Part shown: positions 33,888 to 59,748 of the stretch, in pieces
Numbering within the stretch: position 1 is the first letter of the stretch
Layout: every line of letters begins with the position of its first letter
Assembly (NCBI RefSeq): GCF_001180305.1
Contig: NZ_CVSX01000007.1
Span: 62,001-126,000, forward strand
Length of the DNA stretch: 64,000 nt
Direction of reading: 5' to 3'
Source of the DNA: Prochlorococcus marinus
GTDB taxonomy: Bacteria; Cyanobacteriota; Cyanobacteriia; PCC-6307; Cyanobiaceae
Notes under the pieces: model-generated
Seen by the model: the letters and a program-made list of their open reading frames with translations, nothing else
Told to the model about the DNA's origin: nothing
Database searches by the model: none
Program-made: the position numbers and the translations under genes

Positions 33888-33949
33888 TTTTCTGTATTTA
33901 CTGAATAAAGTGTTTCCTTGTTCCCACTTTTTCAGTAAAAGCTCTTACA
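33860..33949 (-). ncRNA. probable Yfr2-family ncRNA
   Basis: An about 90-nt transcript on the minus strand. A -10-like TAAGAT (33961-33956) lies just upstream. The body is a 15-bp stem with one bulge (arms 33897-33912 and 33925-33939) that presents a loop with GGAACAAGGAAA, including the GGAAACA motif typical of the Yfr2-5 ncRNAs of Prochlorococcus. An 8-bp terminator hairpin (33868-33887) plus a run of T follows. Size, loop motif and terminator agree with that family. Confidence 0.65.
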
Positions 33950-34053
33950 CACACAATCTTAAGGTATGTTATTAAGTCCTTTTTTGTGGAAGAGGTAAAT
34001 GCAATGTTACTAAACTAGCACACATTCAAGTTTTCCTTTTTAGGTTTTAAAGC

Positions 34054-34190: not shown

Positions 34191-34216
34191 TTTTATAAAA
34201 GTCAGTTGTAGACAAC

Positions 34217-34302
34217 GGAGGGGGTGGGATTCGAACCCACGGTGCCCTTGCAGACACGCTAGTTTTCAAGACTAGAGCCTTAAACCACTCGACCACCCCT
34301 CC
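34217..34302 (-). tRNA. tRNA-Ser (UGA)
   Basis: On the minus strand GGAGGGG...CCCCTCC closes the acceptor stem. The anticodon arm is CTAGT-CTTGAAA-ACTAG, giving anticodon TGA. A long variable arm (GCGTGTCTGCAAGGGCAC region) is present, and the T arm is GTGGG-TTCGAAT-CCCAC. The 86 nt lack an encoded CCA. All serine-tRNA hallmarks are intact. Confidence 0.96.
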
Positions 34303-34510
34303 AAGGAGTTATTCAATTTTTTGAACTTGATCAGCCTAGCATAGAAAGTAAGTCATAGGCTAGATAATCAAAGATTAAAAAATAATTTAAAGAAAAAACT
34401 TTTATAGCGATATTTTTATTAGTAATGACAAATTTTATAGTTATAAAAGTCTATTATTAGTAATATTTAGTCCACAAATATACTATAAAACTAGTTCGCT
34501 TCCAAATAAA

Positions 34511-34750: not shown

Positions 34751-34778
34751 AAAAAACCACTATAAAGTGGCTTTTTTT
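34751..34778. terminator. bidirectional terminator next to DUF4278-like gene
   Basis: CCAC-tataaa-GTGG (34757-34770) with seven T on the plus side and six T on the minus side. It ends the minus-strand DUF4278-like transcript 14 bases after its stop. Confidence 0.75.
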
Positions 34779-34791
34779 ATTGGATAAAGAA

Positions 34792-34893
34792 CTAGCTTGT
34801 ATAAGCTTTTCCTCTGTAAGTAAGTTCGTTATGCTGCTTCTTAGCTGCTTCTTTGTTTTGGACGTACTTTTGTCCTCTGTAAATTAGAGTCAT
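34792..34893 (-). CDS. 33-aa DUF4278-like peptide under a probable glutamine riboswitch
   Basis: A 33-aa peptide, MTLIYRGQKYVQ... to ...TYRGKAYTS, with two copies of the YRG motif that characterises DUF4278. Its leader is the probable Downstream-peptide riboswitch, with a GTAN8TAC box just upstream. From memory, the Synechocystis PII-interacting regulator PirA is a small DUF4278-type protein under NtcA control, so this peptide may be a nitrogen-status effector of that kind. The start is ATG at 34893. Role is an inference from the controlling elements. Confidence 0.72.
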   Translation of the reverse strand: MTLIYRGQKYVQNKEAAKKQHNELTYRGKAYTS

Positions 34894-34904
34894 TTTTTAA
34901 GCTC

Positions 34905-34975
34905 CGGTTTCGCTCAAGTCCCCGTTCCATGGCTTGAGTCGATTTGCGGCTTGCAAAAGGCAAGTTGAACGTTTT
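34905..34975 (-). promoter_or_regulatory. probable glutamine (Downstream-peptide) riboswitch
   Basis: In minus-strand order the leader shows CGTTCA (34971-34966), a hairpin CTTGC/GCAAG (34964-34960 with 34954-34950), GCCGCAAATCG, then a hairpin CTCAAG/CTTGAG (34938-34933 with 34918-34913). The loop of that hairpin contains GGAACG, which can pair with the upstream CGTTC to form a pseudoknot. The CGUUCA/GAACG pairing and the pseudoknot are the marks of the glnA/Downstream-peptide glutamine aptamers, which occur in marine cyanobacteria ahead of very short ORFs. Confidence 0.7.
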
Positions 34976-34976
34976 G

Positions 34977-34990
34977 GTAGCGGTTGCTAC
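34977..34990 (-). promoter_or_regulatory. NtcA-type box GTAN8TAC
   Basis: GTAGCAACCGCTAC matches GTA-N8-TAC exactly. It lies right after a TATCAT -10 (35002-34997) and at the predicted transcript start. A box there would block polymerase, as for the NtcA-repressed gif genes of other cyanobacteria. As RNA the same bases could form a 5-bp hairpin. Confidence 0.5.
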
Positions 34991-35196
34991 TTTTTGATGA
35001 TAACATCTCGAAAAAATATTTGTCTAGGTCTTTAATAAATAAACTTTATACTTTGAATAATGAAATTAGGCTCCTAAAAATATAAATGTTTTCATCTTGT
35101 GGTTTCTTGCAGGTTACATTTTGTACGTTTTTGAGAAGTATTTTTTTTTTAATGAACTTTTAAATGTAAAATTCTTAAGATTATAAAATTTGTTTT
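34991..35196. other. intergenic region between divergent small genes
   Basis: With the leader described above this makes about 300 bases between two protein genes. Apart from the -10 at 35002-34997 I see only AT-rich spacer and a T-run near 35141-35150 in front of the 64-aa gene. Confidence 0.4.
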
Positions 35197-35742: not shown

Positions 35743-38076
35743 TTAATCTTTTGGTTTAGCCAAAGGAAGTAGGCACTTATCTGAATCACAACCTGCTGGT
35801 CCTGCTTCAGATAGTTCTCCAATATCATATTTATTAAGAGCGTCAAAGAAATCGTTATTAACTTTTCTTTCTATTACTTTTTTTTGCAAAGAAATATATT
35901 CATCTTTACTTATTGGTTCAAAAGGTAATCTCGGAAAAGTAGCGTTGGCACTAAATCGAGCTAGTAATGCCGCCGAAATATAGCCTTCATTATTTTCTAT
36001 TGCATTATGAATAGCCTTAGCTAAATCCTCAATTTCATTTTCTCTAAATTCTACTGTTGCAGAAGTATTATGCTCTGTATAAAATTTCTGCACTTGCATG
36101 TAAAAATCAAATTGAGCTAAAGCTGAAAAATTATTGATGTCTATCTGGTCAGCACCTTCTATATTTGCCCAGCTAACTTCTGTAGGGATTTCAACAAGCC
36201 ATTCTGTACATCTTGGATCAAATGGATTGTCAAGCAAACAGCCATTTTCATCTTTATCAGACTGAGATGGAACAACTGAGTAACCATAATCCATGCAAGC
36301 TAAAGCAATCGGATCATTTTTCCTGAAAGTAATTCTTCTTATAAATCTTTGAGCTTTTGGAGGATGCCATCCTGGAGCTGCTCCAGTTAGAAGGCTTTTA
36401 GTTCCAGCCGGTTGAACTGTTGTGCATCGATTTGGTCTTCTTAGATTATGTTTATCACAATATTCCCATACAGTTTCTTTTACTATTTTTCTCCATGAAT
36501 CTAGGAATTTAGCTTCCTTCTCTTTGAAAGATTGACCTTCTTCGGTATTTGGCCTTCCTGCTTCCCACCATTTTAACCATGGTGTCCCAAATGCATGAAC
36601 ACAGAAATCAAATAATCCAGTAAAACTTACCCCTACAATAGGGTCATATTCCCTACTTTTTCTGTAACGCTCAACTTCAAATTCATGATTAAGTAAGCAT
36701 GCCACCGAAAGAGCTGCGGCTTTAAAAGCTTTTTCTTGCTCTTCAAAATTTCTGGGATCAATCTGATTTAAATGAACTTCAGCCAAGTTGCAGTGAAAAT
36801 CATTTCCCAAGATCTCACCACAAGGGTTAAGACCATATCTACTCATCCTATGATCTAGCTCTTCTTCAGAAAATGGACCATAATTGCTATTTATCCAATT
36901 TCTAGCTTCATCCTTACCTTGTTCTGAGTAGATTTCAATAAATTCTTTTCTCAATTCATCGTCTTTGAGAATATCTGCATTTGATCTTGCTATTGCTTCT
37001 GGAGCAAATTGAATAGCTCCCTCTCCTGAATGGAATTGTTTTGTAACAGCATCCAGAACAGTCTGGTAAGTAGGTTTTGTATGGTAAACCCTGGTATGAT
37101 TCGCCATTCTGAGGGCATCTTTCTCAGGATCTATTCTCCAATTACCATTCTCATCTTGACTCCATAGATTTTCTTTTGCCGATGCCGCCTCCTCATCATC
37201 TGAAGAAAATTGTCTCATCCCAGCACTTCTTCTTATATTCCCAGCAACTATAGTTACTGCAGCTTCATCAATTAATAAACAACACTCTACTGTACTTAAT
37301 TTCCTGTCAATTGCCTTCCCAAGAAGCGATGCGACTCTAGAGTAGAGATCTTTTAATTTTATAGGATTTGCCATGCCACCAAAACCTTTTAATGATTCTC
37401 CAGCGGGTCTAATATCTTCCAGATTAATATAAACATCAATTTCTCTTTCAAGGTTTTTGTTACTTGATGCTTCAAGAAGATATTTATAGCTATCTACCCA
37501 ACCTCTTCTACTATCTCCAACTTTTATGTGAAGATCTTTGCCTTTGATTTCTAACGATGAATTTTCTTCTCTTTGATCTTTAGGAGTTGTTCCAACTTCA
37601 CTAACTGATTTAATATTTATTTTGTTTATTACTGTAGGAAGTTTGCTTATAAAATGAGGCTCAATTATTGCTCCTGTACCACACCCCATCATTGCTAGGT
37701 CCATCATTAAAGCGAAGGCTTCCCAATCAATTAAGTTTGTTGAGGTGCAGTTGTAAGCTCCTGAGAAATTTTGGTTCTTGTTAATCCAAGGAGTTCCGCC
37801 AATCCATAACCATCTTCCTGATGGCTGGGCTTTTTGGTTGCTTTGCATCTCTCTCATTAGGATCAATTCTTCATCAGAAAGTTTTCCTAACTCTTTTAAC
37901 CCCGATAAATTCCTTTTACTTACTTCGCTCCAGTTTTCCCTTTTGCCAGAAGAAGTTTTCCTACTGTAAGATCTGAAAAACACAGGATAAGCAGCTGGAG
38001 CAGTCTTTGGAAAATCATCTTTTTTAAGATTATTGGAATTGTTCTCAGAAGAAGATTTATTTGGTGCAATAGTCAC
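35743..38076 (-). CDS. nrdJ: adenosylcobalamin-dependent ribonucleotide reductase (class II)
   Basis: Monomeric B12-dependent reductase that makes deoxynucleotides, about 777 aa. Marks are GCGTGAIIEPHF, AGNIRRSAGMRQFSSDDEEA, NPCGEILGNDFHCNLAEVHL with active-site cysteines, GVSFTGLFDF, TTVQPAGTKSLLTGAAPGWHP, and the redox tail CDSDKCLLPLAKP. I take GTG at 38076 (MTIAPNKSS) as start; the ATG at 38136 adds a hydrophobic extension unlike the family. It links DNA synthesis to cobamide supply, which also needs the CbiX gene in this window. Confidence 0.95.
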   Translation of the reverse strand: MTIAPNKSSSENNSNNLKKDDFPKTAPAAYPVFFRSYSRKTSSGKRENWSEVSKRNLSGLKELGKLSDEELILMREMQSNQKAQPSGRWLWIGGTPWINKNQNFSGAYNCTSTNLIDWEAFALMMDLAMMGCGTGAIIEPHFISKLPTVINKINIKSVSEVGTTPKDQREENSSLEIKGKDLHIKVGDSRRGWVDSYKYLLEASSNKNLEREIDVYINLEDIRPAGESLKGFGGMANPIKLKDLYSRVASLLGKAIDRKLSTVECCLLIDEAAVTIVAGNIRRSAGMRQFSSDDEEAASAKENLWSQDENGNWRIDPEKDALRMANHTRVYHTKPTYQTVLDAVTKQFHSGEGAIQFAPEAIARSNADILKDDELRKEFIEIYSEQGKDEARNWINSNYGPFSEEELDHRMSRYGLNPCGEILGNDFHCNLAEVHLNQIDPRNFEEQEKAFKAAALSVACLLNHEFEVERYRKSREYDPIVGVSFTGLFDFCVHAFGTPWLKWWEAGRPNTEEGQSFKEKEAKFLDSWRKIVKETVWEYCDKHNLRRPNRCTTVQPAGTKSLLTGAAPGWHPPKAQRFIRRITFRKNDPIALACMDYGYSVVPSQSDKDENGCLLDNPFDPRCTEWLVEIPTEVSWANIEGADQIDINNFSALAQFDFYMQVQKFYTEHNTSATVEFRENEIEDLAKAIHNAIENNEGYISAALLARFSANATFPRLPFEPISKDEYISLQKKVIERKVNNDFFDALNKYDIGELSEAGPAGCDSDKCLLPLAKPKD

Positions 38077-38209
38077 GATAAAAAAGTATGTAAATAACCC
38101 GTAATGGAAGAATAACTCTACCTGTGGCGTCTGCAACCATTCTTACCACTATTTAACGGTTTGTGTAGAATTATGTTTAATATGAAATCTTTGCTTAGAA
38201 AAAAAGGAT

Positions 38210-59546: not shown

Positions 59547-59565
59547 AAAAATGAGTTAAAGTTAG

Positions 59566-59748
59566 GGTACTGGATCTTTGGTTAAGTTCTTCTTTATGTG
59601 CTCTGATCTGACTTTCTTTCGACGTGAGGAGACTGTCGTGATGCGGTAGTAAACCGATCTTGTAATCGGAAACGAAAGCCCACTTTGAATCCTCTTCTGG
59701 CTTTTCCAGGTCGATGCAGCAGAGAACTGACGGGGATCCGGTGTTACC
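59566..59748 (+). ncRNA. ssrS: 6S RNA (SsrS/SsaA)
   Basis: An about 183-nt segment that folds into a long imperfect rod. The ends pair (GGTA..CTGGATC at 59566 with GATCCGG..TACC at 59735-59748), then GTT-AAGTTCT (from about 59582) with AGAACTGAC. In the middle are two hairpins, CCGAT/ATCGG and GAAAGCC/GGCTTTTC. The single-stranded bubbles resemble an open promoter, the 6S RNA mark. From memory the gene follows purK in cyanobacteria. It sits directly after purK here. No protein-coding frame is convincing. Confidence 0.8.

What the first reader, a model, noticed from the sequence alone, without database searches (positions are those of the whole stretch)
34792..35002. Tiny DUF4278-like peptide under a glutamine-type riboswitch and an NtcA box
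The 33-aa peptide gene has a leader with a conserved CGTTCA, two hairpins and a GAACG that pairs back into a hairpin loop (pseudoknot), as in the Downstream-peptide/glnA glutamine aptamers. A perfect GTAN8TAC palindrome overlaps its promoter. Together these look like a two-input nitrogen switch: glutamine turns translation on, NtcA blocks transcription in nitrogen starvation. This is the same logic as the gifB glutamine-synthetase inhibitor. The peptide may be a PII-pathway effector related to PirA.
Basis: partly seen in the sequence, partly recalled or inferred. Interest (0 to 1): 0.8.

Follow-up and report, generated by a model that had tools for sequence, protein, structure and literature searches.

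The report
Glutamine-sensing leader of a cyanobacterial mini-peptide
This is the Prochlorococcus yfr6 gene, a known tiny gene for a 33-residue peptide whose RNA leader should sense glutamine and whose start site carries a probable nitrogen-regulator (NtcA) site; the gene is known, but the layout it shares with its relatives makes its job in nitrogen control easier to test.

Summary
34913-34974(-) is a Glutamine-II riboswitch (RF01704, 71.4 bits against a cut-off of 33), and the 33-aa ORF is DUF4278 (33.1 bits). The locus is yfr6, described in MED4 in 2005 (PMC1242208, passages). MED4's mapped start falls on the first G of the GTAN8TAC palindrome, so here the palindrome should be nt +1..+14 of the RNA, not promoter hexamers. 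It lies 3-10 nt before the aptamer in 174 of 197 located same-family copies. All 13 type-1 glutamine riboswitches found at 24 DUF4278 loci of other cyanobacteria also have such a box 8-18 nt upstream. This supports NtcA repression plus a glutamine ON switch as a general rule; NtcA binding is untested. The PirA idea is only indirectly right: the peptide has no PirA match, but 17 of 21 DUF4278 proteins elsewhere carry a PirA-like (9) or IF7-like (8) C-terminal part, 6 over the curated cut-offs. Not found in the literature I could search: the operator at +1, a GTAN8AAC site near -42 in 112 of 174 copies, the fusion pattern. The peptide's target is unknown.

The parts
35021..35026 (-). -35 hexamer TAGACA
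   Evidence: similar hexamer in close relatives
34997..35002 (-). -10 hexamer TATCAT, at -12..-7 from the inferred start
   Evidence: over 174 aligned copies T at -12 0.60, A at -11 0.84, T at -7 0.61
34990..34990 (-). inferred transcription start (+1), first G of the palindrome
   Evidence: MED4 yfr6 published as complement(627729..627972) (PMC1242208); base 627972 is this G in G152, which I take as MED4
34977..34990 (-). GTAGCAACCGCTAC: NtcA-type operator GTAN8TAC at +1..+14; its RNA can form a 5-bp hairpin with a 4-nt loop
34913..34974 (-). Glutamine-II (Downstream-peptide) riboswitch aptamer
   Evidence: RF01704 71.4 bits
34967..34971 (-). pseudoknot strand CGUUC
   Evidence: sequence; pseudoknot as in the family structure (PMC6698751, abstract)
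34923..34927 (-). pseudoknot strand GAACG in the P2 loop
   Evidence: sequence
34902..34905 (-). GGAG, likely ribosome-binding site
   Evidence: sequence
34792..34893 (-). 33-aa peptide with two YRG motifs (Yfr6 peptide, DUF4278 module only); range includes the stop codon
34751..34770 (-). hairpin CCACTTTATAGTGG followed by six T, likely terminator; gives a transcript of about 240 nt
   Evidence: sequence; the scan lists this hairpin only on the + strand

Best explanation
The locus is the Prochlorococcus yfr6 gene: a two-input nitrogen switch in front of a stand-alone DUF4278 peptide. Transcription starts at the first G of the palindrome (mapped in MED4, inferred here). In nitrogen starvation, high 2-oxoglutarate lets NtcA sit on the +1..+14 operator and block initiation or escape (inferred). 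When nitrogen is plentiful NtcA leaves, the leader is made, and glutamine stabilises the Glutamine-II aptamer so that the start site is translated (property of the class, inferred for this copy). The peptide is the N-terminal module that other cyanobacteria carry in front of a PirA-like (PII-binding) or IF7-like (glutamine synthetase inactivator) part. It therefore most likely acts on the same ammonium-assimilation machinery (inferred; target unknown).
For: Riboswitch model. Same neighbourhood and peptide length as MED4 yfr6, and published lower expression on N depletion. Start on the palindrome's first base in MED4. Palindrome 3-10 nt before the aptamer core in 174 of 197 located copies; 123 of 131 in the first set. 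Exact GTAGCN4GCTAC only at two riboswitch leaders in this assembly. Box 8-18 nt before 13 of 13 type-1 glutamine riboswitches of DUF4278 loci. NtcA over cut-off in 21 of 25 genus genomes; PII in this genome, 108.6 bits. Peptide under purifying selection: among 78 distinct reading frames 31 of 33 third codon positions vary against 18 first and 16 second; 45 synonymous to 30 other single-base codon variants, where all possible changes give 58 to 217. 17 of 21 DUF4278 proteins elsewhere match PirA (9) or IF7A (8), none both, C-terminally.
Against: No NtcA-binding, probing or expression data for this strain. ntcA is not found above cut-off in this assembly (28.8 bits), nor is amt found; I put this down to incompleteness. 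GTAN8TAC alone is near its chance count in the window. 23 of 197 located copies lack the box. The 112 copies with a -42 site suggest an activator as well, so control is not repression alone. MFE folding of the leader is only modestly better than shuffles (z -1.71, 13 of 200 as good). Only 6 of the 17 PirA or IF7A matches reach the curated cut-off. No evidence says what the peptide binds. The genomes compared are related, so counts are not independent events.
Confidence: 0.78

Rival explanations
1. The palindrome works mainly as RNA: a 5'-terminal hairpin (GUAGC-AACC-GCUAC) that protects or shapes the riboswitch mRNA, and its likeness to an NtcA box is secondary.
For: It is transcribed from nt +1 (MED4). 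Positions 4-11 pair in 173 of 174 copies (58 of 59 distinct boxes), against 2 of 19 glnA boxes and 3 of 13 type-1 boxes. Eight of 23 copies without the box have a stem at the same spot; shuffles at least as good, of 500: L057 1, L027 3, L128 9, L021 15, L473 16, L466 25, L043 63, L026 81.
Against: GTA and TAC never vary in the 59 distinct boxes, which a hairpin alone would not require. Pair 5-10 is broken in 18 of 174 copies. The 12 GTAN8TAC boxes found near amt in other genera, not shown to be NtcA sites or transcribed, pair at 4-11 in 10 of 12, 4 of them GTAGCN4GCTAC. 15 of the 23 copies without the box are not among those eight: L469 has an N9 box, which the GTAN8/9TAC rule of PMC5767323 (passage) admits, and also a stem (11 of 500); L482 has a stem of another sequence (8 of 500); the other 13 rank 43 or more of 500. 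The eight were picked after looking.
Confidence: 0.12
2. Dual use: the palindrome is an NtcA operator and, once transcribed, also a 5' hairpin that acts on the mRNA.
For: Self-pairing at 4-11 is near-universal here (173 of 174) and rare in glnA (2 of 19) and type-1 boxes (3 of 13); stems kept in some copies without the box.
Against: The amt set pairs in 10 of 12, and symmetry is also what a dimer operator favours.
Confidence: 0.3
3. Yfr6/Yfr14 sense-antisense toxin-antitoxin pair, as suggested in 2008.
For: PMC2518516 passages: Yfr14 overlaps Yfr6 and is upregulated early in phage infection.
Against: Riboswitch, NtcA-type box, DUF4278 shared with nitrogen regulators. The 203 positive genomes have 1 to 11 riboswitch copies each.
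Confidence: 0.04
4. The peptide is a dispensable ORF and the RNA itself is the regulator.
For: Yfr6 was first classed as a possible functional RNA.
Against: Codon-level purifying selection; 118 of 118 named Prochlorococcus stretches found by a leader pattern (capped list) encode a YRG peptide.
Confidence: 0.04

Closest known systems
Yfr6 of Prochlorococcus MED4/SS120 (PMC1242208, passages)
   Same: MED4: same neighbourhood (trnS, nrdJ), 33-aa peptide of the same type, 244-nt transcript (about 240 here), palindrome at the start
   Different: Another Prochlorococcus genome; the passages seen mention neither an NtcA box nor glutamine
Type 2 glutamine (Downstream-peptide, Glutamine-II) riboswitch, RF01704
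   Same: Full-length match far over the cut-off; short DUF4278 ORF downstream
   Different: No difference seen
PMM1846 of MED4 (DUF4278, type 2 riboswitch, NtcA motif; PMC6316151, passages)
   Same: Riboswitch, DUF4278 protein, NtcA motif in the promoter region
   Different: Described there as 7 kDa; this peptide is 3.9 kDa
gifB/IF17 of Synechocystis
   Same: NtcA repression plus glutamine ON riboswitch; DUF4278 at the N-terminus (PMC6316151, passages)
   Different: Type 1 aptamer; has an inactivating part that this peptide lacks. I did not look at gifB itself; in comparable type-1 loci the box lies 8-18 nt before the aptamer
PirA (Ssr0692)
   Same: NtcA-repressed small protein gene (PMC8092223, passages); PirA-like proteins elsewhere carry DUF4278 in front
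   Different: The peptide has no PirA match; PirA is reported absent from marine picocyanobacteria (PMC8092223)

Membership tests
Glutamine-II riboswitch (RF01704) | covariance-model score over the gathering cut-off, full length | tested here: met
   71.4 vs 33 bits, positions 1-60 of 60
Glutamine-II riboswitch (RF01704) | glutamine-dependent structural change | not testable with these tools
   needs in-line probing or ITC
yfr6 | trnS - nrdJ neighbourhood, 33-aa ORF about 97 nt from the start, about 240 nt RNA | tested here: met
   tRNA-Ser 34215-34303; ORF 35743-38136 read as nrdJ from place and sequence, not searched; MED4 comparison; RNA ends inferred
DUF4278 (PF14105) | score over cut-off | tested here: met
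   33.1 vs 25.3 bits, profile 1-34 of 57
NtcA regulon | GTAN8TAC box conserved in place | tested here: met
   174 of 197 located copies
NtcA regulon | ntcA gene in this genome | tested here: inconclusive
   only a 28.8-bit match in G000, under the cut-off; over cut-off in 21 of 25 genus genomes
NtcA regulon | 2-oxoglutarate-dependent NtcA binding | not testable with these tools
   needs gel shift
PirA (NF050139) | match to the PirA model | tested here: not met
   no NCBIfam match at E up to 10
PirA (NF050139) | ADP-dependent PII binding | not testable with these tools
   needs pull-down
Glutamine synthetase inactivating factor IF7/IF17 | IF7-type inactivating part | tested here: not met
   no NCBIfam match; model NF052599 does match 8 of 21 other DUF4278 proteins

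The most novel reading that the evidence does not exclude
Marine picocyanobacteria kept only the DUF4278 module of the NtcA- and glutamine-controlled inhibitors (N-extended PirA, IF17), lost the inhibitor parts, and use the free YRG-repeat peptide itself in trans as the effector on PII or glutamine synthetase. The NtcA operator moved into the transcribed +1..+14 position, where it also forms a 5' hairpin, and in many copies a second CRP-type site (GTAN8AAC at -42) serves as an activator.
Probability: 0.28. Interest if true: 0.7.

Novelty: new member of a known kind. Interest (0 to 1): 0.45.

Why it matters
How Prochlorococcus, which is reported to lack the usual glutamine synthetase inactivating factors and PirA (PMC6316151 and PMC8092223, passages), tunes ammonium assimilation is an acknowledged open question (PMC6316151, section 2.7). 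Three results make it more testable: an NtcA-type box and a glutamine riboswitch sit side by side before DUF4278 genes in both riboswitch classes; most of the DUF4278 proteins sampled outside the marine group carry PirA-like or IF7-like parts; and in the marine group the leaders sampled mostly encode the module alone.

Tried and rejected
Rejected or unsettled: (1) that the palindrome overlaps the promoter hexamers; it follows them. (2) That self-pairing at 4-11 proves an RNA hairpin; boxes near amt pair in 10 of 12. (3) A general expression platform: in this leader the free fold pairs CGG of the ribosome-binding region with the aptamer's CCG, and forcing the aptamer raises the unpaired probability of those three bases; I did not test it across copies. 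(4) Naming the -42 factor: a stricter genome pattern gave 8 rows in 7 of 19 genomes, too few to name it. (5) Relatives of a phage YRG peptide or of this peptide in named phages: no match. (6) A relative of the peptide in solved structures: none. (7) Structure prediction and fold search were not run.

Limits: the match list was cut at its best-scoring rows, so the first 133 loci (3, 30, 100) lean to high scores; one search listed the copies of 36 chosen genomes, of which I fetched 80 further loci. Before counting I dropped 2 of 133 and 14 of 80 loci because my pattern did not find the aptamer core. The 197 include the window's own copy (L001) and another of the same genome (L003). The -42 background comes from the same loci further upstream. 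Of 24 outside DUF4278 loci I gave 21 proteins; L508, L514, L517 and L520 were left out, L510 gave two, and L507 was cut at 150 residues.

Full report
What is there. On the minus strand a sigma-70-like promoter (TAGACA 35021-35026, TATCAT 34997-35002) is followed by GTAGCAACCGCTAC (34977-34990), a Glutamine-II riboswitch (34913-34974, RF01704, 71.4 bits), GGAG, and a 33-aa ORF (34792-34893) that scores 33.1 bits for DUF4278, then a hairpin with six T (34751-34770). The type-1 glutamine model gives only 19 bits here, under its cut-off of 35. The flanks are tRNA-Ser(TGA) and an ORF that I read as nrdJ without a search.

It is a known gene. Axmann 2005 (PMC1242208, passages) describes yfr6 of MED4 in the region framed by trnS and nrdJ: 244 nt, a possible 33-aa ORF from nt 97, reduced upon N depletion, coordinates complement(627729..627972). 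Genome G152 has one contig of 1,657,990 bases and its riboswitch at 627894-627956, so I take it as MED4; base 627972 is the first G of GTAGCAACCGCTAC. By my count the ATG there begins at nt 98, one off the paper's text. Weinberg 2010 (PMC2864571, passages) linked yfr6 to the Downstream-peptide motif with a start about 20 nt upstream. Bolay 2018 (PMC6316151, passages) states that type 2 riboswitches go with DUF4278 genes in marine picocyanobacteria, activate expression upon glutamine binding, and that PMM1846 has an NtcA motif in its promoter region. Steglich 2008 (PMC2518516, passages) describes the antisense Yfr14.

Comparative test of the palindrome. RF01704 was found in 203 of 300 genomes of the window's family (I take the family to be the marine picocyanobacteria and kin, no name is given). 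Of 133 loci first fetched I located the aptamer core in 131; 123 of these have GTAN8TAC 3-7 nt upstream. With 66 located of 80 further loci, 174 of 197 have it 3-10 nt upstream. Consensus GTAGCAACNGCTAC. In this assembly exact GTAGCN4GCTAC occurs at two places, both riboswitch leaders.

Controls. glnA: of 30 loci, 19 had a box spaced for activation, mostly GTAC[TC]NNTTGATAC; 2 of 19 pair at positions 4-11. amt: 30 loci gave 12 GTAN8TAC boxes in the stretch scanned, only 1 with activator spacing; 8 begin GTAG, 4 are GTAGCN4GCTAC and 10 of 12 pair at 4-11, which speaks against reading self-pairing as proof of a hairpin. GTAN8TAC in the window is near its chance count. Of 120 viral-collection loci from a capped pattern scan, 96 stretches passed my loose filter, many of them chance matches, and 7 of the 96 have a box just upstream.

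Operator or hairpin. The outer GTA/TAC never varies in 59 distinct boxes; pair 4-11 is complementary in 58 and pair 5-10 in 49, with weak covariation (Fisher p 0.04, not corrected for relatedness). Eight of the 23 copies without the box have a stem at the spot, six of them matched by at most 25 of 500 shuffles; the other 15 include L469 with an N9 box and several that head another ORF family. In 13 of 13 type-1 riboswitch loci the box lies 8-18 nt before the aptamer; TTGAC stands upstream in 9 of 13 so that the box would overlap the -10 (my reading of the printed sequence); it pairs at 4-11 in 3 of 13. I conclude that the operator is the shared principle and that a working hairpin is possible but not shown.

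A second site. Aligned on +1, 112 of 174 copies have GTAN8AAC starting at -50 to -47 (108 of them at -49 or -48), centre near -42; 0.3 expected from the same loci further upstream. Copies without it have better -35 hexamers (mean 4.4 against 3.2 of 6 matches). The window copy is of the -35 type. This is the place of a class II activator of the CRP family (recalled; for NtcA -41.5 is stated in PMC8092223, passage); the factor is unknown.

The peptide. In the first set plus the window (132 leaders, one cut off by a contig end) 72 of 131 picked ORFs have 33-35 aa and 52 have 53-58 aa; YRG-type motifs are mostly 21-22 residues apart. Codon variation shows purifying selection. In the phylum sample PF14105 was found in 21 of 79 genomes, this one included. 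Of 21 such proteins from outside the family, 9 match NCBIfam PirA_Argsyn and 8 GS_inact_IF7A, none both, always in the C-terminal part; 4 and 2 of them reach the curated cut-off, and 4 short proteins match neither. 13 of 24 loci carry the type-1 glutamine riboswitch. So DUF4278 looks like an N-terminal module shared by the two known small inhibitor types, and the marine peptides are the module alone. PMC6316151 (passage) notes that this part of IF17 is disposable for function but promotes stability. Bolay 2021 (PMC8092223, passages) mentions PirA versions with an extended N terminus and reports PirA absent from marine picocyanobacteria; the word DUF4278 does not occur in its main text. In the held library DUF4278 occurs in two papers.

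Literature searches behind 'not found'. They cover open-licence PMC papers only, and I read passages, not whole papers (of PMC6698751 part 1 of 5). The key paper Klahn 2018 (PMC6212724) is not held, so the +1 operator could be described there.

Weak points. ntcA is not over its cut-off in this assembly though it is in 21 of 25 genus genomes. No experiment was possible. Genomes are related, so counts are not independent.

Noticed in passing
L276:2264-2500, L278:2078-2312, L190:1225-1462 (viral-collection contigs): These contigs carry the whole module: Glutamine-II riboswitch, a GTAN8TAC palindrome before it and a YRG peptide. The L276 peptide has no match in named phages.
   Followed up: partly
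L246:12616-12674 (Synechococcus phage S-CBS2, GU936714.1): A named cyanophage has a Glutamine-II riboswitch (66 bits) preceded by GTATCCTTAGATAC.
   Followed up: partly
112 of 174 aligned copies, from about -50 to -34 relative to +1 (for example L014, L042, L131): GTAN8AAC element centred near -42, absent in the window copy; likely an activator site of an unknown factor.
   Followed up: partly
L498-L521: DUF4278 proteins of other cyanobacteria carry PirA-like or IF7-like C-terminal parts in 17 of 21 scanned; 13 of 24 loci have a type-1 glutamine riboswitch.
   Followed up: partly
L455, L471, L472, L474, L478, L480, L482, L483: A Glutamine-II subclass without the palindrome heads a different small protein (MNNL or MNEL start); its aptamer resembles the RS01 sequence of the crystal-structure paper.
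   Followed up: no
L425, L432, L437, L453: Glutamine-II leader with palindrome in front of a roughly 105-110-aa protein with a hydrophobic stretch and a TLW motif, not YRG.
   Followed up: no
L204 (IMGVR_UViG_2667527299_000001): A contig listed as viral holds tRNA, Glutamine-II riboswitch with the 33-aa peptide and an nrdJ-like ORF, with two recombinase-like ORFs (my reading), as for an element inserted at the tRNA.
   Followed up: no
window 33891-33956 (-) and 59564-59748 (+): Cyano-1 RNA (46.2 bits) and 6S RNA (87.2 bits).
   Followed up: no
window 34976-34991 (+): Read on the plus strand the palindrome plus TTTTT looks like a terminator for antisense transcription; the upstream A run that makes it is not general among copies.
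   Followed up: no
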